From the IMG/VR virus record IMGVR_UViG_3300032053_000309, positions 1 to 32,055 of that record: 32,055 nt of DNA; one strand, given 5' to 3'. Origin of the DNA: a virus. The position numbers and the translations under genes were made by a program. Positions 3,791 through 27,082 of the stretch are shown here, piece by piece. A model generated the notes under the pieces. That model saw only the letters and a program-made list of their open reading frames with translations. It searched no databases and was not told the DNA's origin. How positions within the stretch are numbered: the stretch's first letter is position 1; every line of letters starts with the position of its first letter.

Positions 3791-3822
3791 CCCTGCTGAC
3801 GGAAGGGTAAAGGGCTAGGGCT
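3783..3822. terminator. Perfect 12-bp inverted repeat between convergent genes
   Basis: Arms at 3783-3794 (AGCCCTAGCCCT) and 3811-3822 (AGGGCTAGGGCT) are exact reverse complements around a 16-base loop. The stop codons of the plus-strand 89-aa gene and of the minus-strand terminase gene fall inside the two arms. There is no U-tract on either strand, so this is not a standard intrinsic terminator. A hairpin blocking convergent transcription, or one stabilising mRNA 3' ends, is the likeliest reading. Confidence 0.6.
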
Positions 3823-6673
3823 ATCCTTGATTCGTCACTCCAGAATAAGAAGAGATGACGTGCCCCTTGTTCGGATCCTCACGCGTCGGCGCGATGATGT
3901 CAGGGCGCGGGTGCTTGATCATCGACGCGAGCATGCAGTAGACGATCGAGTGAAACGAATCGTCGGGCTTGTCTGGACTGTGCCTGTACTGAATCACCCG
4001 CAACGACTCGTTGTACTCACTGTAGATGTTCATCAAGTCCTGCGCGTAGGGCTGTTTGAACTCTTCCCAGCGAGGCAGTTCAATCTGCTTCCTCTTGATC
4101 GCGTTGAAGATGTCGCTCATGACGTCCGTGCGATTCGTCATCCATCGGCGATAGTTCGGGTTCCAGTGAACCTTCTTCTTCGACTTCGCCACGTACTGGT
4201 ACTTCTGCACACGCTCCTGTCCGAAGGTTCGAACAAGGCGATCGTTCGGATAGTGCCCGCCACCGTAGTCGGCGCCGATGATGACGACGTTGAAGTACCG
4301 GAGCATCTGGATGATCTTCGTGAGCTGGACTTCCGGGTCCGTGTCCTCGCCGACGAAGCGGTGGACGTAGAAGATCCGAAACTTCGAGTTCACGTACATC
4401 CCTAGCGTCAGCACGGTGTACGAGTGCTCGCCAGTATTTCCCTGGTAGGAGATACAACCGTTGCGTTCAGTGACGATGTACCCAGAGGGAACGGCGCAGC
4501 AGTAGACCTTGCCCTTGTACGGTACGTACTCCGTTGAGGATGAAGGCGTATTGAAGGTCACGTCCCGCCCCTCCGACCAACACACGCGCCATTGCGTCTT
4601 CTTGTTTCCGTTGGCCTCCTTGTGCAGACGAAGAACCGAGCGAAGCCCGAGTTTGATGCACAACTCTTGAAAGTCCTCGCAGAGGCCCTTCGAGATGGAC
4701 GAAAAGGCACCACCAGTACAATTGGGTCGGAGATCTACGGTTCCGTCTCCGTCGACGAGGGCTTGCCACAAGATCTTCAGTTGCCGCACGCTCAGTTTCA
4801 AAAATTCACGTGGGATGCGCTTATCGGAACCGCAAGTCCCCACGTTCTCAGCATACCAAGCCCAGAACTGTTTTCCGTAAATGGTCCAGTTTACGTCGCC
4901 TGTTTTCTCGTTAGGAAAGGCTTTGAAGGGGATCGACATCCTTACCAGGCAGTCCTGCATCTTCTGGTAGGTGACTTCATTGACAGTTCGACGCTGGGGC
5001 ATCTTGAGGCAGGAGGGGCGCTCTCCGTCGAAGCAGAGTCCACCCTCACTGATCAAGTACCCAAGAAGTTCGAGCCAGTCGTCCATAGAGAAGATACGGG
5101 CGTCGGCTCCGCTATAGCCTGGACTTACTGGTCGAGGCGGCAGCGTAAAGGAGGGTAGTTCTTCCCCCCTCCATGCGACGGAACCCACGAACTTGACGTT
5201 CCCTCCTCGCTGAACGAGGTCCCCCGCGGACTCCGTGAGCCAGTACGCTCCTTGCGAGACGCCGACGCGCATCCGATGCGTGTCGGTAACCAGGAGGTCC
5301 ATCCCTCCCTTCGTCTTGAAATGAAGAAGAGGTCGGTCCCACTCACGCACCGTTCGCGCCTTCGGCAGGACGAAAGTCATCTCTCGCGTATCAGGATCCC
5401 ATTGAGCAACCTTGTCTTCATCCGTGAGCTCCTGAAAGTACTTGAAGCCGCCCTCCGTAAGGATGCGGGTCTCCTCGTCGTGACACCCCCAGTCGACTCC
5501 CGCGAAGACGTCGCGCCCGTAGGACATGTTGCGGAGCGCCTCGAGCGCCTCGAAGCTCATTCGAACTTCTTCGAGGCAGCACTCCTGCACCTGCTTCATC
5601 GTGAGCGGGCGGAGGCCGGAGTCGAACGAGATGCCGAGGACCTCGTTGTAGAACTTGTCGCGGCCGTAACGCTCGTAGTCGAGGAGGATCTCGCTCCAGG
5701 CCTTCCACGGGACCATGAGCTGTGGGATCCGGTAGCTCTCGAACGGAGCTTCCTCCACCATCCGCGCCCACTGCGCGTCGGGGTGCATCGGATCGATGAG
5801 CTCTCTGCATTTCTCGCAGACTAGGCCCTTCTTCTCGATGTTCTTCTCGCAGAGGATATTCCAGTACCGACCGCCGTCGCCCCCGTGTCGGTCGCACGGA
5901 ACAACCCACTCTCCCTGCGTCGAGAGGTTCGCGCGGTAGTACTCGATGACGTTGTCGAGACTCTTCGGCGTGCCCGAGTAGACGAAGCGCTTCCATCGCT
6001 CCGGGGCGTGGGAAGTACACTGCTCGATGATCGGGATGTTGTCGGAGAGGATGTCCTGGAGCTCGTCGATGAGGAGCTGCCAGGCGGGGATGCCGCGGGT
6101 CCGGTCGGCGTTGAGGAACGCGTAGCGCAGCGTGATCTTCGAGCGATTGACGAACTGCTTCTCGAAGACGTTCTGCTGGAGGGAGTTCATCGTGAACGCG
6201 CGCAGGACGTCGCTCGTCTCGAGCGGGTCCTTGATACGGTCCGAGCTGAACGTCTTCGTCTGCGTCGCCGACGGCGAGACGTAGAGCGTCCGGCAGCCCG
6301 TCACCATGCACGAGTACGTGATCGCCCGGTTGCCGAGGAGCGTCGACTTCTCGACCTGCCGCGCGCAGAAGAGAAGGATGCGCCGCGCCGGCGTGTCGTA
6401 CGCCCGGCGCATGTGGCGACGCCCGTTGAACGTGAACTTCTCGTAGCCGAAGCCGTCCTCCCGGGGCATCCGGAAGGCGAACTCAGTGAACTGCGACGGG
6501 AGGATCGAGGGGATGCTCGGGAGCTTCTTCCTCTTCTTCTCGAGCTCGAGGAACTCTACGAAGGGCGCCGGCTCCGGCATCCAGACTTCTTTGCCTTCGA
6601 GGACCTCATCGGAGACGGGCTCGTCATCCGCATCGAGCTCGAAGTCTTCTTCCAGTACAGTCTGCGCAGCCAT
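3821..6673 (-). CDS. terL: Terminase large subunit (DNA packaging ATPase/nuclease) with intein
   Basis: This is the packaging motor that moves DNA into proheads and cuts concatemers. The 950-aa ORF contains an intein at residues 397-746, so the spliced enzyme is about 600 aa, normal for the family. The ATPase half shows a deviant Walker A CARQVEKST (103-111), Walker B LLIDELQD (200-207) and a coupling motif YSGTP near 232. Cys260, 275, 286 and 289 could bind zinc. The RNase H-like nuclease half has Asp394 in GVDWG, followed after splicing by TGEHSY, then an Asp in IIGADYGGG and acidic PDKPDDSF. The ATG follows GGAGGAAAC, an excellent ribosome binding site. The frame closes at a hairpin shared with a convergent gene. 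Confidence 0.95.
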   Translation of the reverse strand: MAAQTVLEEDFELDADDEPVSDEVLEGKEVWMPEPAPFVEFLELEKKRKKLPSIPSILPSQFTEFAFRMPREDGFGYEKFTFNGRRHMRRAYDTPARRILLFCARQVEKSTLLGNRAITYSCMVTGCRTLYVSPSATQTKTFSSDRIKDPLETSDVLRAFTMNSLQQNVFEKQFVNRSKITLRYAFLNADRTRGIPAWQLLIDELQDILSDNIPIIEQCTSHAPERWKRFVYSGTPKSLDNVIEYYRANLSTQGEWVVPCDRHGGDGGRYWNILCEKNIEKKGLVCEKCRELIDPMHPDAQWARMVEEAPFESYRIPQLMVPWKAWSEILLDYERYGRDKFYNEVLGISFDSGLRPLTMKQVQECCLEEVRMSFEALEALRNMSYGRDVFAGVDWGCHDEETRILTEGGFKYFQELTDEDKVAQWDPDTREMTFVLPKARTVREWDRPLLHFKTKGGMDLLVTDTHRMRVGVSQGAYWLTESAGDLVQRGGNVKFVGSVAWRGEELPSFTLPPRPVSPGYSGADARIFSMDDWLELLGYLISEGGLCFDGERPSCLKMPQRRTVNEVTYQKMQDCLVRMSIPFKAFPNEKTGDVNWTIYGKQFWAWYAENVGTCGSDKRIPREFLKLSVRQLKILWQALVDGDGTVDLRPNCTGGAFSSISKGLCEDFQELCIKLGLRSVLRLHKEANGNKKTQWRVCWSEGRDVTFNTPSSSTEYVPYKGKVYCCAVPSGYIVTERNGCISYQGNTGEHSYTVLTLGMYVNSKFRIFYVHRFVGEDTDPEVQLTKIIQMLRYFNVVIIGADYGGGHYPNDRLVRTFGQERVQKYQYVAKSKKKVHWNPNYRRWMTNRTDVMSDIFNAIKRKQIELPRWEEFKQPYAQDLMNIYSEYNESLRVIQYRHSPDKPDDSFHSIVYCMLASMIKHPRPDIIAPTREDPNKGHVISSYSGVTNQG
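4436..5485 (-). mobile_element. Intein in terminase nuclease motif, 350 aa, with LAGLIDADG endonuclease
   Basis: The intein spans residues 397-746 of the terminase ORF. It starts with Cys397 (CHDEETRIL) directly after GVDWG and ends SYQGN before Thr747. Block B is TDTH (463-466). The endonuclease helices are LLGYLISEGG (536-545) and LWQALVDGDG (635-644). Block F is VYCCAVPSGYIV. The terminal Asn is preceded by Gly rather than the usual His. Removal joins GVDWG to TGEHSY, restoring the nuclease motif, which strongly supports these boundaries. The host gene would be inactive without splicing. Confidence 0.93.
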
Positions 6674-10426: not shown

Positions 10427-10437
10427 ATGGCTCCCTC

Positions 10438-11079
10438 TCAGGTGACCTTTATAATAGCGGCAAGGGAGACAGAAGCGGAGAGGCTTTTGGTCGTCAGAAG
10501 TACGCCGAACACGGTGTCTCCAGGAACAAGACCGCCCAAACCGGCAGAGAACGCCGCGTTGATATCCGCGCCGGCTTGCGCGAGCGTCGTCGTCGGACCG
10601 ATGTAGCCCCACGAGGCAACAACAACCGGACCCGCGGAGAGATTCGCGGAGAGCTGCGCAAGGAAGTCTATGGCGGGGAGCTTCAAGTTGATGGCCGCCG
10701 CTATAAGAAACTGGATGCCGCCAAGCTTCAAAGCGAGCGACGCGGAGATTGCCACACTTGCCGATAGAGATGCCGTGAGCTGGATGGACGGAAGTGATAG
10801 CGAGAGCGCCGCCGTGAGACTGGCGGCGATACTTGCAATCCCAGTGAGTGTGGCCTGAATAGTTGCCAGCGGGTTCGAGATAGAGAGCCCGAGCTGAAGC
10901 TGTGCCTCAAGCGCGCCGTTGAGCTGGAGAGCAAAGTCGGCCTGAAGACCACCGAGACCAAAGGCCCCGAAGAGCATCAAGTCGAGTTGACCTAGAAGAG
11001 GCGCCGTAATGCTGAGGGAGGCTGCGGCGGAGAGGTTGATCGCCCCGAGAGGAAAGGAACCAATGAGGGTGAGACTCAC
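10438..11079 (-). CDS. Extremely hydrophobic Ala/Ser/Leu-repeat protein, 213 aa
   Basis: The GTG start has AGGAGA 3-8 bases upstream. From residue 1 to about 160 the sequence is almost free of charged residues and is built from alternating hydrophobic and small polar residues (LSAAASLSITAPLLGQLDL, LTGIASIAASLTAALSLSL, LTASLSASVAISASLAL). Parts of this look like imperfect 10-14-residue repeats with beta periodicity, not classic transmembrane helices. The C-terminal ~50 residues are less biased (GPVVVASWGYIGPTTTLAQA, GLVPGDTVFGVLLT). The gene lies immediately downstream of the baseplate spike gene, so a baseplate, tail-tip or membrane-interacting component is plausible. I know no named family for it. 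Confidence 0.85.
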   Translation of the reverse strand: MSLTLIGSFPLGAINLSAAASLSITAPLLGQLDLMLFGAFGLGGLQADFALQLNGALEAQLQLGLSISNPLATIQATLTGIASIAASLTAALSLSLPSIQLTASLSASVAISASLALKLGGIQFLIAAAINLKLPAIDFLAQLSANLSAGPVVVASWGYIGPTTTLAQAGADINAAFSAGLGGLVPGDTVFGVLLTTKSLSASVSLAAIIKVT

Positions 11080-11133: not shown

Positions 11134-12405
11134 TCAAGTTAAGACGGTCGGTTCTGCACTGACTATTGTTCCAGTGACAGGTATCGCAGGGATGCCCGCG
11201 GGTGGCACACCGATCGAGAGGGTACCGGGGATAGGGATACCAGGTACCGCAATGTTGGGGGCTAGAACTCCGATCGGAGTAAACACCGCCGGCATCTGAG
11301 TGATGTACGACTGAACAATGTCCGAGAGACGTGCAACGGGGCGCGTGCCTGGGCCAAGGCGCACGAGCTTGCCCTTGATATGTGCAGAAGAGCCTCCGTC
11401 GAGCACCGCGCCCTCCTTCACTACAAAGTTGAGCGCCTTCTGCCCCGTGACCTCAATGTCGTCCTCGACGGCGATGATCATCTTCTTCTTCACCTGGAGA
11501 GAGAGATTCCCCTCCATTCGGAAGAGCACGTTCCCCTGTCGGTCAAAGATGAACTTCAAGACCGAGGTCTTCACCGTGGCGGGACTCGCCGAATCTCCCG
11601 TCTCAGAAACAAACCCCTTCGGTGACACCGAGAGCTCGCATATGACAGGGTTGTCGCTCCCTTGCCCCACACCAGCAGCCGCAAGCTTGACCCCCCCATC
11701 GGGCTCTGGGTACGGGTTGTAAACCTTGCCTACGCAAAGACGAATGTCTGCGTACTTGTCGTTCGCGAAGACGCGAAATGTCTGCATGTACTGCGTCGGA
11801 AAGTTCGTCTGCGAAGGCCCATCCTGTAGCCCCCAGAGAACGGTGCCGCCTGTATTGTAATGCGCATAGTTCTCGCTGACATCAATCATGAGATTGTTCA
11901 ACGGGACGAAGATGCGCTGTGAAAGCGACGTAGCCCCGATCTCCAGAACACCGCCGCGGTGAAGGCGAACGAAGTTCCCGTCACGACCGCGAATCCCCAT
12001 ATCCCCCGGCTTCGCACGAGGCCTCCCGCCGGCAAAAGAAGCGTCGGTGGGGTTCACCGGCGGGGCACCGTGAGAGCGCGTGCCAAGCGGCGCGCCATCA
12101 GCAGCCCCGTTCGTGAGCTCATGTGGCATCAGGAAGGAGAGGACGAACGGTGGTGATGTATCCCCGGGCACGCAGACCTGACAGACTGAGCCCACTTCGG
12201 GGAAGGCGTAGAAGCCCTCCCCGTTGTTGACGTTCATGTACGGAGAACCTACCTGGATGTCGAAAAACTTCTTCCGATCGAACGTGCAGACGATGTTCAC
12301 CGTCCAGTTCACGAGGTTGATCCCCACAACCCGGCCCTGAAGAATGAGCGCTGGGTCAGTCCCCTCGCTCGAGGCCATACCCGTTCGGGCGAATCTCTTC
12401 GACAT
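11134..12405 (-). CDS. Baseplate spike/hub protein with N-terminal OB-fold (gp5/gpV-like)
   Basis: Residues about 20-95 match the OB-fold of phage gp5/gpV spike proteins: LQGRVVGINLVNWTVNIVC, then a GEGFYAFPEVGSVCQVCVPG turn and a proline, then FVLSFL. A Gly/Pro-rich linker follows. The next ~200 residues are beta-rich (RIFVPLNNLMIDVSEN, FKF-type strands, LSLQVKKKMIIAVEDDIEV, GSSAHIKGKLVRLGPG) and would form the extended trimeric part. The C-terminus has Ile/Pro/Gly repeats (VPGIPIPGTLSIGVPPAGIP). Such proteins sit at the tip of a contractile or flexible tail and breach the host envelope. The gene starts 21 bases after the polymerase stop. The first ATG has little Shine-Dalgarno support; ATG at residue 10 is an alternative. 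Confidence 0.85.
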   Translation of the reverse strand: MSKRFARTGMASSEGTDPALILQGRVVGINLVNWTVNIVCTFDRKKFFDIQVGSPYMNVNNGEGFYAFPEVGSVCQVCVPGDTSPPFVLSFLMPHELTNGAADGAPLGTRSHGAPPVNPTDASFAGGRPRAKPGDMGIRGRDGNFVRLHRGGVLEIGATSLSQRIFVPLNNLMIDVSENYAHYNTGGTVLWGLQDGPSQTNFPTQYMQTFRVFANDKYADIRLCVGKVYNPYPEPDGGVKLAAAGVGQGSDNPVICELSVSPKGFVSETGDSASPATVKTSVLKFIFDRQGNVLFRMEGNLSLQVKKKMIIAVEDDIEVTGQKALNFVVKEGAVLDGGSSAHIKGKLVRLGPGTRPVARLSDIVQSYITQMPAVFTPIGVLAPNIAVPGIPIPGTLSIGVPPAGIPAIPVTGTIVSAEPTVLT

Positions 12406-12426: not shown

Positions 12427-15400
12427 CTAGTAGTAGTGCTTGGGCACATCGTGCAAGTGATGAAGTCCGGGCTTCTTCGCATCGGCGGAAGTAAGGCCTA
12501 GCTCAGCGCCGTATGCGATCGCCGGGACGGGGTGCATTGAATGGATGTTCGAGATCCCCAGGTTCGCGGACGCCTCCAAAAGAGTAGAGCGAAGTTCACG
12601 GTGCTGCATTTTCGCCATCCAGTCCTCCTGGAGCTCGAGGGGCATGTACTCCACCCCCTTCAAGACGGGCTCGTGCTCGATCGGCCTCTTTCCCTGCTGA
12701 ACAAGTTCGGCGTTCATCTTCTGAACAACGGAAGTAGGACGGAACTCGCCGCGAAGAACAGAAGGATGATCACCGGGATCATGGACTTTGGTCAAGTTAC
12801 TCATTGACTTGACCATTACTTCGACAGACCGACGCTTGATGTGCTCATCCTTGTACAGCTTGTAAATCTCGCTCGCGAGGTGGTTCTGCACCTGATCGAT
12901 GCTCTTCGTCGCCCGGTACAGGTCGTGTGGGTTCAAGATCGTACGGTTCGGGTCGGACAGATGTTGCCCCGCCTCAACGTGCATCCCCACGACCGGCGGC
13001 GTCCAGGCCACGTACGCGGGGTCGAGGGTGGCGTGCGGTAGGTCCTTTAGAAGAGAGTTGCCACCCGTGTCTTTGCCTACGAAGTGCTTCTCCTTTCCGA
13101 TCCACACGTCAGTACCCGTCCCGTGATGATCGATCTTGTCGATCTTCCCGCTCTGCATCGACAACGTGGCGGCGTTGCTGATTGTGTCCTCGAGTTTGGC
13201 TAGCTGCTGGAAGCGCGCGAATGAATTCAAGAGGTTCTTCTTACCCCCCGCCTCAACAACCCCGCCCGTGTGGAAACTCTTGAGCGTGAGCTGAACAGCG
13301 CGTTCGCCGACGGTGTGCGCAGAGATGACGCCGATGTTAGTACCGAGCGGGTGGTGCGTCCCCGTCGCGGAGAGGCCGACGCACTTCTGACAGAGGCCCT
13401 TCTCCTCCTCGCACTTGAGGGGGGATCGCACGACGATCTTTGCGTTTTGATTCGACCGGCGAATCTTGCTCATCATGTCAGGCGTCACGATGTCGCCCGC
13501 CTTGAAGTGGAGGTCGCCCGCCTTGAAGTCCTGCGCGAGGTGCCGATCGTGCACGTCCGGCTCGTTCACGCTGAGGGCAACCCCGTGCGTGGTCCCACAG
13601 TCATGATTGTTCACGAGCAGGTGCATCATGTTGTTCATCAGAAGCTTCGACATGTAGCCGGGCTCCTGCACTTCCTGCACCTTCATGACAGCCCCGCGGC
13701 GAGCTCCGGGCATCTGGTTCCAGTAGCCCGCTACGTCAAGACCCTCCGAGTAGCTCTTCGTAACGGGCGTAGGGAGCGTCTTACTCTCCGAGTCCTGGAA
13801 GAGCATCGGAGCGAGCACCATCTGCTTGTACTGTTCCCAGCCCGGCTTCACACCGGCTTCGTGCATCAAGAAGAGGTTAGACGGGTCTTTCTGCGCCTTC
13901 GCGATGTGCTGTTTCTTCATCTCTCCGTCGGCGCTGTTCCAGAGCAAAATGGACTGCCGATCCTGCTCGTGTAGCGGGAGCTTCTTGTCCGCATAGATAG
14001 CGTCGACCTTCTTCTGCGTCGCGCCGAGAACGTGATTTCGGACCGCCGTGTCCGGCGTGAAGTCATTGAGCCCGAGTGTGTGAGTCCCGACAGGTATGGA
14101 GATCGAGAGCTTCGGGTCGAGAGAGGCCCCGGGGTAGCCCTTGATCGAGTCGAACCTGAATGCGTGGCCCTGCGGCAGGTGCGGAAGAACGACAGTTCCG
14201 AAGGCCGCTCCGTTGCCCATGTCCTTGAGACGATTCACGACAGTGCCATAATCTGCCGTGTGCTCCTTTGCGAGCCCAGTCAGAAGAGTGTCTAGACCCT
14301 TCCGATCAACAGTCGTTTTGAGGTCATGGAGGATGTTCTTCTGGAGCTGAGTGCCACCCTTCTTGTCCTCGGGGAGCGTCGCGGCGAGCAGGATGCGCCC
14401 GGCCGTGGTCTCTCCACCGGGAATGTGGATGCGGTCGTTGACGTGCATCTTCCCATTTCGGAGGTGATCGATCGCGTGCCCGGGGTTGTCGAACTTGTGA
14501 ACGGCGGCGCCGTGATTGACGCGGGACAACTTGTAGAGCCCGAGAGCGCTCTCGAGCGTCGGCTGGTACACGACCTTCCCCGTCGACTCGGCGAGGAGGT
14601 TGTTCGAGGGGAACATCTTGCGCGCTTCTTCCACGGCCTCGTGAGAGATCGGAACGAAGATGCTCATCGTGTCCCCGTCGAAGTCGGCGTTATACCCGCC
14701 GGTCACGAGGGGGTGGATCTGCACAGCGCTGCCGGGGGACAGGCGCGCCTTGAAGGCCTGCACGCTGTACTTGTGGAGCGCCGGGTCTCGCTTCATCAGG
14801 ACGGGGCGCTCGGCCATGACCTTCTCTAGCGCGTCCCAAACGGCCCTCGGTTTCTTGTCCAGGAGTGCGGCCGTGTCCCCGCCCATCGGCGTCTTTACGG
14901 CGCCCATCTCCCAGAGCTTCTTCACGACGAAGGGCTTGAAGAGATCGAGTGCGGCCGCGCGCGGGATGCCCACCTCGTCGAGACCGAGCGCCGGCTCCGG
15001 GATGATCGTCGAGCGCATCGTCAGGTCCTGACGACGGTTCATCAGGGTCTCCTGGAAGAAACCGTTCTTTGGAATACCTCCGGCGATCTGATGTAGCAGC
15101 CCCTTCTGCTTCACGTCGTCGTAGGGAATCCCGACACCCATGAGCCCCTTCACGCCATCGTAGTACTCCCGACGGAGATCCTTCTTGTTCTCGTCAGTGA
15201 GGTGCCTCGTAAGAATCGGATCTTTGAGCTTCTCATTGATCTTGGCGAACTCGGAGTAGAGCCCGTTCACGTCGGCGTACTTCAGGTCTCCGCTCGGAAG
15301 CTGGGACACGGGGCGCATCACTGGAGGAAGAACGGGCAGGTTATGGAGAACGTAGGCCTCCGACGGCCTCAGCTTGAGCTGGTCGAGCGCCTGGAGGAAC

Positions 15401-18400
15401 TTCACCCTCTTGAGGGCCGCGTCGACCTTCGGCCCCTTGGCGATCTTCAGCGTGTTGTGCGCCGTCGGGAGCTCCTTCGCCACGTCGATCTTGTCGAGGA
15501 GCATCTTGATGGCGCCGCCGCCGGTCGTGCCCTCCCCGATGTTGACGAGCGCGCCCTTGGCCGTGACAGCCTTCTCCCCGTGGATGATCGAGGCATAGTC
15601 CTTCTTCTTGAGGCCCGTGAGCGACTGAATCGCGGACTCGAAGACGGGGTTTGGGAGGGGCTCGGCGAGCTCGATGCGGGACCACTTCCGGCCCTGGTGA
15701 CCGCCGGTCAGCTTCTCATCGAAGAGACCGCCGGGGCGGGGGCGAAGGTCTCCGTCCTTCGTGTTCTTCGCGTAGAGGAGGTCCATCGGCTTGGTGAGGA
15801 CGTTCGGCGCCATCGCCTTCACCTGCCCGTCCGTCATAGGCGAGAGGATGAAGTTGTGGCCCTTCTTCTCCATGTTCACGCCACTCGCGCGGAGCATGTC
15901 CTCGAACTTCCGAAACGCGAACGTGGGCGTCGGGGTCGGGAGGGGCGCACCTGTTTGGATCGCCGCCCATACCTGGTTGTGCTGGCTCGCCCAGCGCTTG
16001 TCAGGATTCGTTTGCGGGTCGGGGCCCTCCGACTTCCAGGTCTGCATCTCACGGATGTTTGCCTTCGCGCCGTGCGCGAGCATCGCGTACATGCCGAGGA
16101 CGCCCATCGACTGCCCGCCCGTACCTCCTCCAGAAGACGGCTGCAGGTTCAGGTCGTAGTGCTCGTTGTTCCGCATGCCCGGCATAGCCATGCCGGAGCG
16201 CACGGAGAGCTTCTTGTCCACCTGGTGGACGAGCTTCATCATGTACTGCGGACCGACCATCGCCTTCCCGAGGGACTGCTTCGTGTGCGGGTCGATCACC
16301 TCCTCGGTGTCCGGGATGCCATGCTCCTTGAGAAGGTCTTTCACCCGCTGGAGGTGGTCGGTTTCGGGCTCGAAGTTCTTCACCAAGTACGGCTTGCCCG
16401 TCTTCTTGGCGATCTTCGCGATGGCGGTCTCGAGGACCTGCCCGACGTTCATGCGCCCCGGGACGCCGGAGGGGTTGAGCGCGACCTCGATGTGCTTGCC
16501 GTCCGTGGTGTGCGGCATCTCCTTATCTTCGAGGATCTTGGTGACGATGCCCTTGTTGCCGTAGCGCCCAGCCATCTTGTCACCGACCTGCATCGGCTCG
16601 ATGGTGCGGACGTGGACAGTGATCTTGTCGCCGGCGTGATGCACGTCGACGACATCCCCTTCGAAGTCCGAATCCCAGCGCATGCTCTTGTCCGTATGCG
16701 CCCCGCTCATGCTGCGACGAATCGCTGAGAGGCCAGATCGATCCTTGATCTGGTACGGCTTCGTGGCGAGGACGAGCGGATCTCCCGGCGAGACCTTCTG
16801 CCCTATGCGAACGATGCCCTCATCACCGACCTTCTCGAGCTGCAGGCGGGAGAAGAGACCCGGGTGTTGAATCTGAAACTTCCGCTTGTTGACGGTGATG
16901 TCCCGATCGAGCTGAAGGTGATCCTTGTGGAGGTGCTCGCTAGAGAGCTTCGCCGCCGCGCTCTGCGAGATGACGATGCCGTCCTCGAAGTTGTAGCCCT
17001 TGAACGGGATGTACCCGACGCGCAGGTTCGTTCCGAGAGCGAGGGTCCCGTTGCGCGAGTAATTCGTATCGGCGATGGTCTGCCCCGCCTTCACGGTGTC
17101 ACCGACCTTTACGAGAGGCGTCGAGTGAAGAACGCTCTTCGTGTCGTTGACGGGGTAATTGTTGTAGAGCTGCACCTCGTGGTGCGCGCCCTTCTCGTCC
17201 TGGATGATGATGCCGTCCTTCCGGATCTCCAGGACCTTTCCGTTGGTGGGCGCCGCGTGCGATGCCTGCTTTCCAAGGAGGCCCTCGAAGGACTCAATCC
17301 CCTTCGTCACTACACCCGAATGTACTTGAACGAGGGGCGCCTCTCTGTGGAGGAGGGAGATCGACTGCTCGATGTGACGTGATGCCATCGAGGCCCTGTT
17401 GCCGCTCGTGTTCCCCAGGAAGGGGATCAAGTTCGACGTCATGTTGAAGAGCTGCGACGAGTGCCGCATCACGTAGTGCGCGTCGCTGAACTTCCCGTCG
17501 ACGATCTTATTGCCCTGACCGCTCATCTTCACCGTGTCGTGAAGAGGAACAGGCTTGCCGCCTTCCCACCGAACCTGGTCGGGAAGAACAACGCGAGCCG
17601 ACATGAACTCCCCAGGGCTGACCAGATCGGTCTTGCCCGTGAGTGTATTGTACAGGTGGATGCGAGGTTCATTGCCGACCTTCTTCACCCCGATCGGGAG
17701 ACGCAGCGTAACGCCCGTCTTCTCCCCCTCCGGCGTGTTGATCGGGTCGAGGAAACCCAGGTGCGACGGATTGACGAACTTCGCCTCGTTATTGACGCTC
17801 TGTTCACTCTGGATACCGCCCGGACCCATGATGGTCGTCTGCATCGACGAGCTCACCATCTCCACGGGGTTGATCTGACTGGCTACGCGAGAGGCCATGT
17901 TCTTGTGGAACGTGTGCTTGATCGGCTCATTGAAGAGATCGAACTTCACAACGTCACGCACGCTGGTAGCCTTATTCACCTGTCGCTGCGCGCGCGAGCT
18001 GATCACCTTCCCCGCGTTCCGTAGGAAGTCGTGGGCGAAGTCGCCGACTGTACGGAGGTCCTTGAAGATGAGACTGTCACGGTCATCCTCCGGGTGCCCT
18101 CCGTGGACCTTGAGGAGCTTCTCCGTCGCCTTGTGCAAGACCTCACCGCTGACATGATCGTACGGCTTACCGAGAGTAATGCTCGTGGAATCGGGGCGAA
18201 GACGGGATGAGAGCATGGTGTCGACGAGGTGCTGCTCGGCGACCTCTTTCGACGGAGCGGTGGACTTTCTGGACACCTTGTAGAAGCGCTCTACTGCGCC
18301 GGCGGCGCCGCGCATGTTCTTGTTCGCGTCGAAGATCTCCTTGCCCCAGCTCTTCGTGAGGTCATCGTCACTAACGCCCATCGTCTTCAAGAGCGGGTAG

Positions 18401-18918
18401 AGGGGCAAGTGCGACTTGCTCGCCCCGTACTGCATCTCGAAGACCTTCTTGTCAGGATGAAAGACAACGTCGAACGACGAGCGTCCAGCGACATTCATCC
18501 GACTCTCGAGCTCACCGTTACGACGGCGCTTCGTGTAAACGCCCGGCTTCAACTGCCACTGGTTATCGACCTGGTACTCCTGGCTACCTGACGGACCGGC
18601 CACGATGTAGCTGTATCGACTCGTCATCTTCGGGATCTCAGCGATCCGAATTCGCTTCGAGTCGATGACTTTGCCCGTTTCATTGTCCTTGAGCGTCAGG
18701 TGCGCGAAGACAGGTACCGACCAGCTCTCCCCACTGACCTTCGCCTTGTGCTGCCCGCGGAGATCGTCGGGATGTAGATCATCTTTCACCTCGAGATTGT
18801 CGAGGTAGAGCGATTGTACTTTCCCCTGAATGCGGCCGCCGGGGAAGTGGCTCTCGATTCCTTCGAGAACGCGCTTCTGAAAGTGATCGAAGGCTTCCGC
18901 CGGATTGAGATGGGCCAA
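12427..18918 (-). CDS. Single-chain beta-beta' DNA-dependent RNA polymerase, 2163 aa
   Basis: One ORF carries RpoB-like then RpoC-like domains. Beta signatures: TPEG (395-398), KGYNFEDG (640-647), GDKMAGRYGNKG (779-790) and GGQSMG (934-939), the last matching the GGQRFGEM region. Beta' signatures: GGLFDEK then RIELAEP (1063-1087), RPVSQLPSGDLKYADVNGLY, the active-site loop NADFDGD (1410-1416, Mg-binding Asp1412/1414/1416), zinc-site Cys1774 (DCGT), 1836, 1843 and 1846, and the trigger-loop region GVISAHTVGE to SFHTGG (1863-1886). All catalytic elements are intact, so the enzyme should be active. The first beta' zinc ribbon (normally between GGLF and the IELA motif) is absent. The chain is shorter than E. 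coli beta plus beta' (about 2750 aa). It starts at TTG with AGAGGTAAGAAC upstream. No alpha, omega or sigma gene is in the window. Confidence 0.96.
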   Translation of the reverse strand: MAHLNPAEAFDHFQKRVLEGIESHFPGGRIQGKVQSLYLDNLEVKDDLHPDDLRGQHKAKVSGESWSVPVFAHLTLKDNETGKVIDSKRIRIAEIPKMTSRYSYIVAGPSGSQEYQVDNQWQLKPGVYTKRRRNGELESRMNVAGRSSFDVVFHPDKKVFEMQYGASKSHLPLYPLLKTMGVSDDDLTKSWGKEIFDANKNMRGAAGAVERFYKVSRKSTAPSKEVAEQHLVDTMLSSRLRPDSTSITLGKPYDHVSGEVLHKATEKLLKVHGGHPEDDRDSLIFKDLRTVGDFAHDFLRNAGKVISSRAQRQVNKATSVRDVVKFDLFNEPIKHTFHKNMASRVASQINPVEMVSSSMQTTIMGPGGIQSEQSVNNEAKFVNPSHLGFLDPINTPEGEKTGVTLRLPIGVKKVGNEPRIHLYNTLTGKTDLVSPGEFMSARVVLPDQVRWEGGKPVPLHDTVKMSGQGNKIVDGKFSDAHYVMRHSSQLFNMTSNLIPFLGNTSGNRASMASRHIEQSISLLHREAPLVQVHSGVVTKGIESFEGLLGKQASHAAPTNGKVLEIRKDGIIIQDEKGAHHEVQLYNNYPVNDTKSVLHSTPLVKVGDTVKAGQTIADTNYSRNGTLALGTNLRVGYIPFKGYNFEDGIVISQSAAAKLSSEHLHKDHLQLDRDITVNKRKFQIQHPGLFSRLQLEKVGDEGIVRIGQKVSPGDPLVLATKPYQIKDRSGLSAIRRSMSGAHTDKSMRWDSDFEGDVVDVHHAGDKITVHVRTIEPMQVGDKMAGRYGNKGIVTKILEDKEMPHTTDGKHIEVALNPSGVPGRMNVGQVLETAIAKIAKKTGKPYLVKNFEPETDHLQRVKDLLKEHGIPDTEEVIDPHTKQSLGKAMVGPQYMMKLVHQVDKKLSVRSGMAMPGMRNNEHYDLNLQPSSGGGTGGQSMGVLGMYAMLAHGAKANIREMQTWKSEGPDPQTNPDKRWASQHNQVWAAIQTGAPLPTPTPTFAFRKFEDMLRASGVNMEKKGHNFILSPMTDGQVKAMAPNVLTKPMDLLYAKNTKDGDLRPRPGGLFDEKLTGGHQGRKWSRIELAEPLPNPVFESAIQSLTGLKKKDYASIIHGEKAVTAKGALVNIGEGTTGGGAIKMLLDKIDVAKELPTAHNTLKIAKGPKVDAALKRVKFLQALDQLKLRPSEAYVLHNLPVLPPVMRPVSQLPSGDLKYADVNGLYSEFAKINEKLKDPILTRHLTDENKKDLRREYYDGVKGLMGVGIPYDDVKQKGLLHQIAGGIPKNGFFQETLMNRRQDLTMRSTIIPEPALGLDEVGIPRAAALDLFKPFVVKKLWEMGAVKTPMGGDTAALLDKKPRAVWDALEKVMAERPVLMKRDPALHKYSVQAFKARLSPGSAVQIHPLVTGGYNADFDGDTMSIFVPISHEAVEEARKMFPSNNLLAESTGKVVYQPTLESALGLYKLSRVNHGAAVHKFDNPGHAIDHLRNGKMHVNDRIHIPGGETTAGRILLAATLPEDKKGGTQLQKNILHDLKTTVDRKGLDTLLTGLAKEHTADYGTVVNRLKDMGNGAAFGTVVLPHLPQGHAFRFDSIKGYPGASLDPKLSISIPVGTHTLGLNDFTPDTAVRNHVLGATQKKVDAIYADKKLPLHEQDRQSILLWNSADGEMKKQHIAKAQKDPSNLFLMHEAGVKPGWEQYKQMVLAPMLFQDSESKTLPTPVTKSYSEGLDVAGYWNQMPGARRGAVMKVQEVQEPGYMSKLLMNNMMHLLVNNHDCGTTHGVALSVNEPDVHDRHLAQDFKAGDLHFKAGDIVTPDMMSKIRRSNQNAKIVVRSPLKCEEEKGLCQKCVGLSATGTHHPLGTNIGVISAHTVGERAVQLTLKSFHTGGVVEAGGKKNLLNSFARFQQLAKLEDTISNAATLSMQSGKIDKIDHHGTGTDVWIGKEKHFVGKDTGGNSLLKDLPHATLDPAYVAWTPPVVGMHVEAGQHLSDPNRTILNPHDLYRATKSIDQVQNHLASEIYKLYKDEHIKRRSVEVMVKSMSNLTKVHDPGDHPSVLRGEFRPTSVVQKMNAELVQQGKRPIEHEPVLKGVEYMPLELQEDWMAKMQHRELRSTLLEASANLGISNIHSMHPVPAIAYGAELGLTSADAKKPGLHHLHDVPKHYY

Positions 18919-19142: not shown

Positions 19143-19358
19143 GTGAGCAACCGCAAAGTCTTCTGGTGGGCGTTCATCGCAGGTGCGTTGAACGGAATAC
19201 TAATTGGAATTCGAGAGCTGCTTAGTGAGGATCGCAGCAATGCTTCTGAATCCGTACACGGACCAGCACCGGGTTCGCCCAATCCCGGGGACGCGTCTGC
19301 TGGAGGACATGATCGGACTAGTGGGGGAGGAGGTGAGGGATCCAAAAGAGCCGTATAA
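19143..19358 (+). CDS. Possible small membrane protein, up to 71 aa
   Basis: A GTG start 3 bases after the 41-aa gene gives a basic N-terminus (SNRKV), then one hydrophobic helix FWWAFIAGALNGILIGI, then a charged RELLSEDR. This is the classic layout of a single-pass membrane protein. After about residue 32 the frame overlaps the next gene by 119 bases and becomes Gly/Ser/Pro-rich, as expected from an out-of-frame reading of that gene. The overlap lowers confidence. The membrane segment itself is outside the overlap and is the best reason to keep the gene. Confidence 0.42.
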   Translation: MSNRKVFWWAFIAGALNGILIGIRELLSEDRSNASESVHGPAPGSPNPGDASAGGHDRTSGGGGEGSKRAV

Positions 19359-19830
19359 GCGGTGGAGGATTCAGTCGACCTTCGCTCCCCTTCGTGGGCG
19401 TGTACTCGGCGGCATCCGCGTGAAGCTCATCGACCAGAAGGGCTTCATCACCTTCTGTAACCAGCGGGACCTCGAAGTCGTGCTTGGTCTCGAGGCACCC
19501 GGCAATTGGTGCGTCTGGGCGGGGCATAAGTACGTCGACCCGGAAGACCGGAGTTGGATCGGTTTCTGTGCCGACGAGGACGATCTCCTCGACGACCTGC
19601 AGGAACGTGAGCTGAACCTTCGAGGAACTACCCCTGGAGGCGTTCTAACTGCCCCCCTAGAACTACAGAGGAGAATACACATAGAAGAAAAAGTAGATGT
19701 AGAAGAGTTGTTCATATTCGTCTGGGACTTCGACCCCGATACCGGGTTTTTTCCGGACATGAGACTTGAAACGATCGAGAAGCGCTGGTCTCGCGTGCAA
19801 AGGGAAAAGGTGAGATGGAACCGGATCTGA
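19240..19830 (+). CDS. Phage protein of unknown function, 196 aa
   Basis: The ATG at 19240 (MLLNPYTDQHRVRPIPGTRL) has GAGG 9 bases upstream; a TTG at 19204 is the only longer option. The product is a soluble, mixed alpha/beta protein with several Trp and aromatic clusters (GNWCVWAGHKYVDPEDRSW) and acidic patches (ADEDDLLDDLQE). The central part, with GRVLGGIRVKLIDQKGFITF, looks like short beta strands around a small domain. There are no catalytic motifs I recognise. Its stop overlaps the start of the following Cys-rich gene by 16 bases, so the two are probably translationally coupled. Confidence 0.75.
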   Translation: MLLNPYTDQHRVRPIPGTRLLEDMIGLVGEEVRDPKEPYKRWRIQSTFAPLRGRVLGGIRVKLIDQKGFITFCNQRDLEVVLGLEAPGNWCVWAGHKYVDPEDRSWIGFCADEDDLLDDLQERELNLRGTTPGGVLTAPLELQRRIHIEEKVDVEELFIFVWDFDPDTGFFPDMRLETIEKRWSRVQREKVRWNRI

Positions 19831-20408
19831 CGTCCATCACGGGCGTTACCAAGCAGGTCTGCGCCCAGTGCGGGGAAGAGATTGAATTCGCCGAAGAAGT
19901 CTTTCTACTTCAGATCGTTCGGGCGCACGAGGCACATGGGCAACTCTCTCTCCATCTGGCGCTGGATGACACCGGGGACTTCTTGTACGAGCCGCACTTC
20001 ATTCACTTCAAGTGCTGGGAAGAAATACAGGAAGAGCTAGAAGAAGAGCTCGAGAACGAGCCACCGATACTCGCGGCTCGGGGGGTGATCGACTGCAAGT
20101 CCTGCGGAGGAGGAATACAACCCTCTGAAGTTCTAGGGGCACTGACCCTGGGTGAGCTGTACGTTTCAAAGCGCGCCCCAACGTCGACGGGGCGCGGTGA
20201 GGACTTCGAGGAGGGCGGAGATCCCTTCTTGTTTTGTGTCTACTGCCTCAACTTGATCAACGACAACTGGCTGGAGTTCTGGGCGGGCGGGATCTCTGAA
20301 ACCGGCGAGTGCATGGACTGCATCCAATCGCGCTGCTGGCGCTTTCGAGAGACGAGCCACGAGTGCCAGTGTCTTTGCCACACTGAAGTTCCGCCTGAAG
20401 AAGAGTAG
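19815..20408 (+). CDS. Cys-rich multi-zinc-finger protein, 197 aa
   Basis: Three Cys clusters suggest several bound zinc ions: CAQC (16-19) with a possible His64/Cys67; CKSC (94-97) with CVYC (141-144); and a dense C-terminal group including CMDC (166-169), Cys174 and CQCLCH (184-189). A highly acidic helix EEIQEELEEELENE links the first two. The arrangement recalls paired zinc ribbons or LIM-like modules used for protein or nucleic-acid binding. The start is well supported by AAAGGTGAG immediately before the ATG. It directly precedes the AAA+/VWA pair and may act with it. No named family is recognised. Confidence 0.78.
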   Translation: MEPDLTSITGVTKQVCAQCGEEIEFAEEVFLLQIVRAHEAHGQLSLHLALDDTGDFLYEPHFIHFKCWEEIQEELEEELENEPPILAARGVIDCKSCGGGIQPSEVLGALTLGELYVSKRAPTSTGRGEDFEEGGDPFLFCVYCLNLINDNWLEFWAGGISETGECMDCIQSRCWRFRETSHECQCLCHTEVPPEEE

Positions 20409-20415
20409 GTGTTCT

Positions 20416-24178: not shown

Positions 24179-27082
24179 TCACACCATTCCAGCCGCGCGC
24201 CGCGGCGGCAACTTGTCCGGGAGCGGCCGCATGTCAACGCCAGCGCCCTGCGCCTGTCCTCCCCCGCCTCCGCCACCTTGTTGCCCGAGGAGCTGCTCGA
24301 CCATCTGCGCGAGCTCGGGACTCTGCGCGCGGAGGTTGCTGAGCGCGAACTGCTGCTGAGCAGGCGGAAGCGAGGAGATGAGCCGCGCCTGCGCCTGCGC
24401 CATGGTCGGCAGATCGATCTGCATCTGCGTGACCTGCCCGTTCTGGTCCTGGGGCATCTGCTGCCCCGCGTTGAGCGGGCTCTGCATCGGCGACGGCACG
24501 CCGCCCTCGAGACCCTCCGCGCTCTCCGGACCGCCAGCCTCGCCCGGCGCCGGCGGAGCTCCCATCGCAGCCTGCTGCGCTTGCTGCGCTTCGACCTGGT
24601 ACTTCATCATGATCTTCTGCGACTCGCCCTGGATCTCCGCGAGCGCGAGCTGCTGCTTCTTCGTGACCTCAAGGCGCTTATCGAACTCGCGCAGCATGAT
24701 CTCGTTCTCGTCGTTCTGCGACAGGTCCGAGTCCGAGAGGAGCGTCGTGTCGGAGACCTTCCCCGCCGAGTTGAGCTGGAACATGTAGGCCTTCCGCTGG
24801 ATGTCGTCGGCCATCTTGAACGGCTTGAACCGGATGTTCGCCATTGGCCAGCCGAGGTACGACGAGACGCTCGTCATGATGTACTTAGCGAGCATCCGCT
24901 GCCGCTGGTTGTACCCGAGGAACTGGTTCTCAAGCATCCGCATCGAGACGTTCGTCCCGGCGTAGGACATGCCGCCCTTGATGAACTCGAGAGGGACCTG
25001 CATGCCGTTGATGATCTGCTCGCTCCAGGCCTGAATCTCCTGGGTCATGAGCAGCGCGCGCCCGTCACCACCGATGGTCTGGTTGCCAATCGGGAGCGGC
25101 ATGATCGGGATGTAGTTGTTGTCGTAGCGCCAGCGCGCGATCTCCGTCGCAACGTGATCGCGCCAGTCGACGAGGTTGATCGTCGTGTAAGGGTCGGCAC
25201 TTCCGCTCCCTGCCTGCGGGAAGAGCACGCGCAGAGGCACGATGTGCTCGAGGAGAATCGCCTCCTGCGCCTTCTTCATGAGCTGCAGGTAGAACGTGTC
25301 CTTCAGAACGGGGAGGATGAGGGGAATGCCCCAGCCTCGGTCCTGGTTGGCGATCGTGGCGCGACGGAGGTGGAAGAAGTTGTCCTTCGAGAAGACAATC
25401 CCTTTCCCCTCCTTGATCGCCTGCATGAAGATCTGGGGGAGCTGCTCGACGGTGTCCTTCCGGCCGAGCGCGACGTCGTTCCGAACGATCGCGGGAATTG
25501 TGTAGTAGTACGAGTACTCCCCTGTGATGTCGTTGTAGTTGATCTCGATGTCTTCGGGGTTCCAGCGGATCGTCTTGATGCCGCTCGCGTTCTTGAAGTA
25601 GACGTCCGTCGCCACAGCGTCCGCGGTCTGATGGCACTTCGGGCACGTCAGACGGAACTCGTTGTTCGTGAACGCCCAGTACGGCCGGATCTTCGAGGCC
25701 ATGTCCTTGAAGTCGCACGCCCGGCACTGGAGGTACTTCTTGAAGGGGAAGCCGAGGCTGACCGCGCTGTTGCCGTAGCAATTCCCAGTGAGCACACCGT
25801 GCTCGATGACGAACGAGTGTGTTTCCGGTTCAATGCAGCAGAAGACATCTTCGACACGGTCGGTCGGGACCACCTTCTTGACCTCAATGAACTTACCGTA
25901 GGAGGTCTTCTCGAACTTCTCCTCGAAAAGAGCTCGCTGGTCCGGACGAATGAAATCTTCAGGGAGCAGGTACTGCTTCTTCAGGTTCAGAACATTGACG
26001 GGCTCTTCCTGCTTCGTGAAATTGCTCCACTGCCAGTACTCACGAACCTTCCCACCGAGCATCCCGAACCAAGGAAGACGTTGGGAAATTTCGACAAGAA
26101 CGTCCGAGGTCTTCTGGTTCAGTGTGACGCAACCGTCGCGCTTGGAAACGTGGCCATCCGTCGAAAGAAGGCCGCAGGTGAACCCGTACCAGTAGCTCGC
26201 TGAGGCATCGCCCTTCGGAGGTGACTTGAAGCAGGGATCCAAGCCGTACACACCGAGGTACTTCTCCTCGTGATGCGGCGTGATTGCGGAGGAGTGCCCC
26301 TCGAAGTACTTCGCGAGCTTCCGCTTTTCCTGCGTGTAGAGAATCAGATGGGCCTGCCGTCCCTCATTCGACGTGGTCCCGTCGCCGAACACGATCCCGT
26401 GACGGACACCCTCCCAGAACTCCTCGTTCTTCTCGGGTCGCTGTGCCACTACGCGGGGGATGGTCTTCCCCTTCAAGCTCTTGGTGACCTTCCAAACGAT
26501 CTTCTTTTCCTTTGCGTCCCACGTCGGCCAACGATGCTCGTCGGTAGCGAAGAGCACCCCATCTTCCGTGTGAACCTCCCAGAGACGCTGCTTCCCATAA
26601 AAATGGAAGCTGGCGGTACGGTAAACACCACCATCAGAGAGGACATCGACTGTTCGACCCGTCAGGTCTCGAATGGGCACCACACCCCCGCGTGTGACAA
26701 CGCGCGTTTCTCCCGAGAGGCAGTGGTAGTCGAGCCCGCTCTCCACGCGGAACGCGTTGAAGCGGAGCTGGTCGTTCAAGTACTCCGTCCAGAGCTTCAC
26801 CACCGACGGTGACTCGTGGTCGATGATGATGTCCGTGACGGGGTACTCGGAGAGCTTGAAGACCGTCGCGTTGATGATCGGGTTCGTGAGGAAGTAGTAG
26901 CGGCACCACTTGAAGAGCTGCTTGACGGTCGTCGGCAGGTACGTGTGCGCGACGTCAAAGAACGGGCTCGGGTAGTTGACGCCCTGGATGTTGTTGCCCT
27001 GGATGCGGCCGCGCGTGCTCGCGAAGCGGAGACCGCTCGCCGGACCTGCGCCCGGTCCGATTCCTCCACCGATGAAGCTCAT
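24179..27082 (-). CDS. Portal protein with intein
   Basis: The 967-aa ORF includes an intein at residues 121-434, leaving a spliced protein of about 653 aa. Portal identity rests on the overall layout: an N-terminal region with TTVKQLFKWCRYYFLTNPII, a body with FHLRRATIANQDRGWGIP, WSEQIINGMQVPLEFIKGG and FLGYNQRQRMLAKYI, and a Gln-rich helical C-terminus ending in a Gly-rich stretch (LLGQQGGGGGGG). These resemble portals of large myophages. Portals form the dodecameric DNA gate in the head vertex where terminase docks. Cys453, 456, 480 and 483 form a likely zinc ribbon in the C-extein, unusual for a portal. Its ATG overlaps the stop of the preceding gene (TGATG). Confidence 0.86.
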   Translation of the reverse strand: MSFIGGGIGPGAGPASGLRFASTRGRIQGNNIQGVNYPSPFFDVAHTYLPTTVKQLFKWCRYYFLTNPIINATVFKLSEYPVTDIIIDHESPSVVKLWTEYLNDQLRFNAFRVESGLDYHCLSGETRVVTRGGVVPIRDLTGRTVDVLSDGGVYRTASFHFYGKQRLWEVHTEDGVLFATDEHRWPTWDAKEKKIVWKVTKSLKGKTIPRVVAQRPEKNEEFWEGVRHGIVFGDGTTSNEGRQAHLILYTQEKRKLAKYFEGHSSAITPHHEEKYLGVYGLDPCFKSPPKGDASASYWYGFTCGLLSTDGHVSKRDGCVTLNQKTSDVLVEISQRLPWFGMLGGKVREYWQWSNFTKQEEPVNVLNLKKQYLLPEDFIRPDQRALFEEKFEKTSYGKFIEVKKVVPTDRVEDVFCCIEPETHSFVIEHGVLTGNCYGNSAVSLGFPFKKYLQCRACDFKDMASKIRPYWAFTNNEFRLTCPKCHQTADAVATDVYFKNASGIKTIRWNPEDIEINYNDITGEYSYYYTIPAIVRNDVALGRKDTVEQLPQIFMQAIKEGKGIVFSKDNFFHLRRATIANQDRGWGIPLILPVLKDTFYLQLMKKAQEAILLEHIVPLRVLFPQAGSGSADPYTTINLVDWRDHVATEIARWRYDNNYIPIMPLPIGNQTIGGDGRALLMTQEIQAWSEQIINGMQVPLEFIKGGMSYAGTNVSMRMLENQFLGYNQRQRMLAKYIMTSVSSYLGWPMANIRFKPFKMADDIQRKAYMFQLNSAGKVSDTTLLSDSDLSQNDENEIMLREFDKRLEVTKKQQLALAEIQGESQKIMMKYQVEAQQAQQAAMGAPPAPGEAGGPESAEGLEGGVPSPMQSPLNAGQQMPQDQNGQVTQMQIDLPTMAQAQARLISSLPPAQQQFALSNLRAQSPELAQMVEQLLGQQGGGGGGGQAQGAGVDMRPLPDKLPPRRAAGMV
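25781..26722 (-). mobile_element. Intein in the portal gene, 314 aa, with LAGLIDADG endonuclease
   Basis: It runs from Cys121 (CLSGETRVVT) to Asn434 (EHGVLTGN) of the portal ORF and is followed by Cys435. Block B is TDEH (180-183). The endonuclease helices are HGIVFGDGT (228-236) and FTCGLLSTDGH (301-311). Block F is VFCCIEPETHSFVIEH. As in the terminase intein, the residue before the terminal Asn is Gly, not His. Removal joins SGLDYH to CYGNSAVSLG. Codon use inside is visibly less GC-biased than in the flanking portal sequence. Confidence 0.93.

What the first reader, a model, noticed from the sequence alone, without database searches (positions are those of the whole stretch)
12427..18918. 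Canonical beta and beta' RNA polymerase subunits fused into one phage chain
All key bacterial-type motifs of RpoB and RpoC are present in order in one 2163-aa ORF (for example GDKMAGRYGNKG and NADFDGD). From family knowledge, phiKZ-like phages split these subunits across several genes, and the known single-chain phage enzymes (YonO, crAss-like) are far more diverged. I know of no described phage enzyme with this layout; natural beta-beta' fusions are known in some bacteria such as Helicobacter. It could be a compact, alpha-independent polymerase.
Basis: partly seen in the sequence, partly recalled or inferred. Interest (0 to 1): 0.78.

Follow-up and report, generated by a model that had tools for sequence, protein, structure and literature searches.

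The report
One-chain bacterial-type phage RNA polymerase
This virus of bacteria carries its own RNA-making enzyme in which the two large bacterial subunits are joined into one compact protein, and the same fused enzyme occurs in hundreds of related but barely studied phages, which makes it a natural minimal version of the cellular transcription machine.

Summary
In detail: window 12427-18918, on the MINUS strand, is one 2163-aa open frame holding complete RpoB- then RpoC-type sequence, with all catalytic residues. It is no assembly error: 69 further full-length one-chain relatives (37-66% identity) lie in independent IMG/VR contigs, and a profile scan found at least 553 relatives. The genomes are tailed phages; the RNAP follows a conserved portal gene.

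A sister clade (Salmonella phage Arash, Vibrio phage D69) keeps the same beta-beta' joint but has beta' cut into one or two further genes. Fusion is therefore ancestral and the cuts are secondary. The joint is always 24 residues, with no linker.

The enzyme lacks the N-terminal zinc domain of beta', has a shortened beta flap (25 residues against 37 or more) and a non-canonical rifampicin pocket. No alpha or omega gene was found in 25 large genomes; sigma region 2 was recognisable in 7. Best explanation: a one-chain, alpha/omega-free core polymerase for phage genes, predicted rifampicin-resistant and using non-canonical promoter recognition.

Weinheimer & Aylward (2020) probably already sampled this lineage as "mReC", but their main text reports no fusion. 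I therefore call it a new variant of a known kind. Transcription activity, subunit content and virion location are untested.

The parts
12427..18918 (-). One-chain RNA polymerase, beta-beta' fusion, 2163 aa, TTG start, stop included
15868..18918 (-). RpoB-like (beta) moiety, residues 1 to about 1017
   Evidence: Pfam and NCBIfam; AF2 model of residues 1-1130, pLDDT 83, closest to bacterial beta, TM about 0.70
12430..15867 (-). RpoC-like (beta') moiety, residues about 1018-2163
   Evidence: AF2 model of residues 985-2163, pLDDT 83.4, closest to bacterial beta', TM 0.73-0.77; NCBIfam rpoC
15838..15879 (-). Fusion joint: predicted tight beta-hairpin, residues 1014-1019 / 1022-1027; the joint stretch is exactly 24 residues in all 70 members
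14671..14691 (-). NADFDGD catalytic motif (residues 1410-1416); in several relatives an intein sits between G1415 and D1416
16549..16584 (-). GDKMAGRYGNKG motif of beta with the two catalytic lysines (residues 779-790); intein sites beside it in relatives
16597..16659 (-). Shortened beta flap (residues 754-774): flap-tip helix replaced by a tight hairpin; 25 residues to GDK in all 46 phage sequences, at least 37 in the bacteria sampled
17815..17889 (-). Rifampicin-pocket equivalent (residues 344-368): Q513R, D516S, H526S, R529Q, S531T in E. coli numbering
13381..13599 (-). Second zinc-binding site of beta' (Cys 1774, 1836, 1843, 1846)
15139..15273 (-). Clamp-helix (sigma region 2 docking) equivalent, residues about 1216-1260, predicted helix-turn-helix
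   Evidence: functional role inferred
24179..27082 (-). Portal gene (homologue of the annotated portal of phage Arash) interrupted by an apparent intein; conserved upstream of the RNAP in 18 of 20 other loci
3821..6673 (-). Terminase large subunit with an apparent LAGLIDADG intein
11134..12405 (-). Conserved gene directly downstream of the RNAP on the same strand, function not assigned
   Evidence: 13 of 20 other loci; no family hit

Best explanation
It is the phage's own DNA-dependent RNA polymerase core in one polypeptide. The beta part (residues 1 to about 1017) runs through a linker-free hairpin into the beta' part (about 1018-2163). The two double-psi barrels would form the active site, with Asp 1412/1414/1416 holding Mg and the two beta lysines, as in bacteria. 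Covalent joining would replace the alpha2/omega assembly platform, for which no gene was found. Because the flap tip (sigma region 4 dock) and the first beta' zinc domain are missing while the clamp helices remain, initiation probably uses a sigma2-like or phage-specific factor rather than a normal -35/sigma4 contact. The altered pocket predicts rifampicin resistance. The gene lies beside the portal gene on the strand of the structural genes, so late synthesis, possibly with packaging into the virion, is plausible. SHOWN (sequence or computation): fusion, catalytic motifs, missing elements, family, gene order. INFERRED: activity, alpha-independence, promoter mode, rifampicin resistance, virion location.
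For: Single frame in the window and in 69 full-length relatives; catalytic residues invariant across 46 clade A/B sequences (the one odd Asp in L084 lies at an intein edge); inteins at catalytic motifs, a habit of essential active enzymes (general knowledge); AF2 halves with bacterial beta and beta' as best PDB matches; one DPBB locus per genome in 25 of 25 records; no RpoA-type domain and no omega in 25 records, with positive controls; sigma region 2 in 7 of 25; flap 25 residues in 46 of 46; ZBD1 gap in all of clades A and B; synteny with portal; no close relative in 84,980 cellular genomes.
Against: Nothing biochemical. Host alpha, omega or sigma could still bind; the surfaces were not modelled and only two halves were folded. 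The chain could be processed by a protease. Records may be incomplete, so absence of alpha is not proof. No shared promoter motif was found in two genomes. The virion hypothesis rests on gene position only.
Confidence: 0.72

Rival explanations
1. Two separate genes (rpoB and rpoC) merged by a sequencing or assembly error, or contamination by a cellular genome.
For: Common artefact in principle; bacterial rpoB and rpoC are adjacent in the same order.
Against: 69 independent contigs carry the same full-length single frame; the joint is always 24 residues; no close relative in cellular genomes; it lies among phage genes.
Confidence: 0.01
2. A fused polymerase that still works as a bacterial-style enzyme: it recruits host alpha2, omega and sigma, and fusion is only a neutral gene-structure accident, as in Helicobacter and Wolinella.
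For: Overall bacterial-type fold; fused bacterial enzymes exist (PMC1557499); clamp helices retained.
Against: Flap tip and ZBD1 lost throughout clades A and B; long divergence from bacteria; phages infecting hosts as different as Vibrio and Salmonella, plus unknown hosts, would need a matching alpha.
Confidence: 0.2
3. A virion RNA polymerase, packaged and injected to transcribe early genes, like the phiKZ or N4 vRNAP.
For: Gene sits directly after portal on the structural strand in clades A and B; only one RNAP per genome.
Against: No proteomic data; phages may place late-acting RNAPs anywhere; some genomes encode sigma factors.
Confidence: 0.4
4. A recent acquisition of a Helicobacter/Wolbachia-type fused rpoBC from a bacterium.
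For: Best NCBIfam scores are the two fused bacterial beta/beta' models.
Against: Scores are an order of magnitude below their cut-offs (494.7 against 5372; 454.3 against 4632); the family forms its own clade outside the nine bacteria; those models are about 700 residues longer.
Confidence: 0.03

Closest known systems
Salmonella phage Arash / Vibrio phages D69, D181, D148 RNAP (GenBank only)
   Same: Same beta-beta' joint, same portal neighbour, about 31-32% identity, short flap, no ZBD1
   Different: beta' is cut after the DPBB into a separate gene of about 615 aa; in related contigs beta' is cut a second time near residue 1130; D181 beta is also split next to a homing endonuclease
mReC phages of Weinheimer & Aylward 2020 (PMC7481178)
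   Same: Phage RpoB/RpoC homologues alignable to bacteria and in their own clade; one relative (L208) comes from the metagenome that yielded two of their representatives
   Different: Their text speaks of beta and beta' subunits and mentions fusion only for crAssphage; their MCP family PF07068 was not found in 45 records here
Helicobacter/Wolinella/Wolbachia fused RpoBC
   Same: One polypeptide, beta then beta'
   Different: Cellular and about 2840-2890 aa; the phage chain falls far below the curated cut-offs and forms a separate clade
phiKZ/AR9 multisubunit jumbo-phage RNAPs
   Same: Two-barrel phage RNAPs without alpha or omega
   Different: beta and beta' split into 4-5 polypeptides, two enzymes per genome, far more diverged
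YonO, crAss-like gp66, P23-45 gp64/gp96 single-chain RNAPs
   Same: Both barrels in one chain
   Different: Very diverged with little recognisable RpoB/RpoC sequence; here full bacterial domain order is kept
Yeast cytoplasmic linear-plasmid RNAP (K2ORF6p + K2ORF7p; PMC6211774)
   Same: beta fused to part of beta', with the beta' C-terminal part as a separate subunit, as in the Arash clade
   Different: Eukaryotic virus-like element; its family membership was not tested here

Membership tests
Bacterial-type two-barrel RNAP core | DxDxD (NADFDGD) in the beta' barrel | tested here: met
   Invariant in clades A and B
Bacterial-type two-barrel RNAP core | Two barrel lysines of beta (GDK, GNKG) and trigger-loop His | tested here: met
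   K 46/46 at both sites; His in every A/B sequence that covers the site
Bacterial-type two-barrel RNAP core | First beta' zinc domain (ZBD1) | tested here: not met
   Gap in all clade A and B sequences
Bacterial-type two-barrel RNAP core | alpha and omega partners encoded | tested here: not met
   0 of 25 records for PF01193 and for PF01192
mReC (Weinheimer & Aylward 2020) | Tailed-phage contig with COG0085 and COG0086 homologues and the NADxDGD motif | tested here: met
mReC (Weinheimer & Aylward 2020) | RNAP clade separate from cellular RNAPs | tested here: met
   Small tree with 9 bacteria, no archaea
mReC (Weinheimer & Aylward 2020) | Major capsid protein PF07068 | tested here: inconclusive
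   0 of 27 and 0 of 18 records, but only 8 of 97 mReC had a detected MCP; Carin-5, RHph_TM30 and YerA41 do have it
mReC (Weinheimer & Aylward 2020) | Contig on the published mReC list | not testable with these tools
   Supplement not readable; L208 shares metagenome 3300017989 with mReC1 and mReC3
Fused bacterial RpoBC (NF007172, NF011417) | Curated score cut-off | tested here: not met
   494.7 against 5372 and 454.3 against 4632 bits
phiKZ/AR9-type RNAP | beta and beta' each split; two RNAPs per genome | tested here: not met
   Single chain; one DPBB locus in 25 of 25 records
YonO/crAss-like single-chain RNAP | Only the DPBB core recognisable; no RpoB/RpoC family hit | tested here: not met
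   Strong Pfam and NCBIfam RpoB/RpoC hits

The most novel reading that the evidence does not exclude
A very large lineage of tailed phages, stem-branching outside known bacteria, has inherited since its origin a one-chain, alpha/omega-free crab-claw RNA polymerase that starts transcription without a sigma4-flap contact and is carried in the virion.
Probability: 0.22. Interest if true: 0.82.

Novelty: new variant of a known kind. Interest (0 to 1): 0.6.

Why it matters
All cellular multisubunit RNAPs use an alpha-type platform. A full-domain bacterial-type enzyme in one chain would show that covalent fusion can replace it, and would offer a single-gene model of the crab-claw enzyme for mechanism, engineering and rifampicin-independent expression. 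Splits in one clade, with the beta-beta' joint always kept, turn the question of fusion versus splitting in phage RNAPs into something a tree can test. The isolates Arash and D69 make the family workable in the laboratory.

Tried and rejected
Assembly artefact: rejected. Relation to Carin-5/YerA41-type separate subunits as close kin: rejected, very long branch; scans with Carin-5 and RHph_TM30 queries in IMG/VR found nothing (the first query was the Carin-5 beta, although I had chosen it as beta'). Promoter motif discovery in two genomes with crude gene calling: no clear motif, sigma70-like pairs not above chance. Sigma factors: region 2 in 7 of 25 and region 4 in 10 of 25 records (6 over the cut-off), so not universal at this sensitivity. 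Identity of the family with mReC: could not be settled (supplement closed; MCP test inconclusive; one search added no second 3300017989 contig). BFVD search gave no fused viral match among the rows shown, only separate beta' chains. No archaeal sequences were available for the tree, so ancient origin was not tested.
Full report
WHAT IS THERE. The open frame lies on the minus strand, 18918 down to 12427: 2163 residues, TTG start, no internal stop; the + strand is full of stops. GAAGAGG stands just upstream of the start and the family consensus begins with M there. The window is a linear IMG/VR virus record of 32,055 bases. Pfam finds Rpb2 domains 3 and 6, then Rpb1 domains 1 (weak), 2 and 5. 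NCBIfam gives rpoC 8e-129 and rpoB 9e-89. Phage context: terminase large subunit, a homologue of the annotated Arash portal, and no close relative among 84,980 cellular genomes.

NOT A ONE-OFF. A scan of IMG/VR with the protein returned 79 loci; 69 hold a full-length one-chain homologue, 37-66% identical, mostly 2008-2207 aa. Longer ones carry 338-517-residue insertions at residues 398, 782, 791, 820 and 1415, several with C...GN|S/C/T edges, hence inteins, at or beside catalytic motifs.

SISTER CLADE. Among sequenced isolates the best matches are Vibrio phages D69, D181 and D148 and Salmonella phage Arash, about 31-32% identical. In D69 and Arash, beta plus the first part of beta' is one protein of 1546 or 1525 aa, and the rest of beta' (610 or 628 aa) is a second gene. 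D181 is also cut in beta next to a homing endonuclease. A scan with the Arash chain gave 27 more loci. In a subclade beta' is cut again near residue 1130, leaving a 381-388-aa DPBB piece. In none of these is the cut at the beta/beta' border. The cut after the DPBB resembles the site shared by cyanobacteria and jumbo phages (PMC7598289) and the ORF6/ORF7 division of yeast virus-like elements (PMC6211774).

TREE. On 1983 aligned columns of 47 rows (IQ-TREE, LG+C20, quick search), one-chain sequences (25 rows, support 91) and split-chain sequences (11 rows, 100) are sisters; together they form a clade with support 99, separated from nine bacteria and from Carin-5/YerA41, which sit on a very long branch. 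Since bacterial beta' is whole, the simplest history is one fusion before the A/B split and later cuts in clade B. The tree has no archaea and few bacteria, so it says nothing firm about age.

ANATOMY. Catalytic aspartates, both barrel lysines and the trigger-loop histidine are kept in clades A and B. The joint stretch between conserved beta and beta' blocks is exactly 24 residues in all 70 sequences, and AlphaFold2 draws it as a tight hairpin (residues 1014-1019 and 1022-1027; local pLDDT about 75 in the N-half and 89-94 in the C-half model). Best PDB matches are bacterial beta (TM about 0.70) and beta' (TM 0.73-0.77). Missing or changed: the first beta' zinc domain; the flap between the conserved G and GDK is 25 residues in 46 of 46 phage sequences, against 37-161 in bacteria and 35-36 in Carin-5/YerA41, and is modelled as a hairpin without a tip helix; the rifampicin-contact positions Q513, D516, H526, R529 and S531 read R, S, S, Q and T. 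That the flap tip is the sigma region 4 dock and that these positions contact rifampicin is established knowledge, not tested here.

PARTNERS. In 25 large records of clades A and B (up to 195 kb) there is one DPBB locus each, no RpoA-type domain, no omega in an overlapping set of 25, sigma region 2 in seven and region 4 in ten, six over the cut-off. Positive controls rang. Records may be incomplete.

NEIGHBOURHOOD. A portal homologue lies upstream of the RNAP in 18 of 20 other loci across both clades, and the downstream genes 11134-12405 and 8285-10612 recur in 13 each. Position in the structural block suggests late expression and perhaps packaging; this is inference.

MECHANISM. Most likely a one-chain core that needs no alpha/omega platform, with bacterial-type two-metal catalysis and a changed initiation mode. 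The catalytic role is nearly certain by homology; self-sufficiency is likely; the promoter mode and virion role are guesses with stated tests.

WHAT IS KNOWN. Weinheimer & Aylward (PMC7481178) described 97 RNAP-encoding contigs, many from IMG/VR, as beta and beta' subunits; the only fusion their main text mentions is crAssphage's. Two of their three shown representatives come from metagenome 3300017989, which also yields L208, a one-frame relative of 2044 aa. Overlap is therefore likely but unproven; their capsid marker PF07068 was absent from 45 records here, though it was seen in only 8 of their 97. Other papers read (PMC7598289, PMC7824862, PMC10770324, PMC13282480) describe split jumbo-phage or highly diverged single-chain RNAPs; in the passages read none describes a bacterial-type beta-beta' fusion in phages. 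Cellular fusions are known in Helicobacter and Wolinella (PMC1557499) and Candidatus Adlerbacteria (PMC11515920). The library holds open-licence papers only, so prior description elsewhere cannot be excluded.

VERDICT. A confirmed, widespread, coherent enzyme family; a new variant of a known kind (phage bacterial-type RNAPs), with fusion as the ancestral state.

Noticed in passing
window 3821-6673 (-) and 24179-27082 (-): Both the terminase and the portal gene are interrupted by apparent inteins (C...GN|T and C...GN|C edges; LAGLIDADG domain in the terminase); inteins are common throughout this phage family.
   Followed up: partly
L210:2947-9018, L203:2935-9240, L216:2971-9042: RNAP frames with in-frame TGA codons only (11, 1 and 1), suggesting phages with TGA reassigned to a sense codon.
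   Followed up: partly
window 19204-23024 (+): A conserved divergent cassette beside the RNAP: a MoxR-type AAA ATPase (20416-21651), a VWA/metallopeptidase DUF2201 protein (21651-23024) and a Cys-rich protein (19815-20408), seen in close relatives only.
   Followed up: no
window 10438-11079 (-): A 213-aa protein made of Leu/Ala/Ser/Gly-rich repeats of low complexity; a similar-sized ORF (202-216 aa) stands at the same place in relatives.
   Followed up: no
L190:8512-9041: RNAP frame broken by many stops after residue about 1865, including a short repeated sequence (SLTRKW): a degraded or misassembled beta' end.
   Followed up: no
L119-L134: Three-piece RNAPs whose second cut lies just inside beta' near residue 1130, leaving a 381-388-aa DPBB protein.
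   Followed up: partly
phages collection: OR844998, OR846602, AGRM01000005, CAKLQH020000005 and others: Several records filed as phages carry ordinary bacterial rpoB/rpoC and look like bacterial contamination or misfiling.
   Followed up: no
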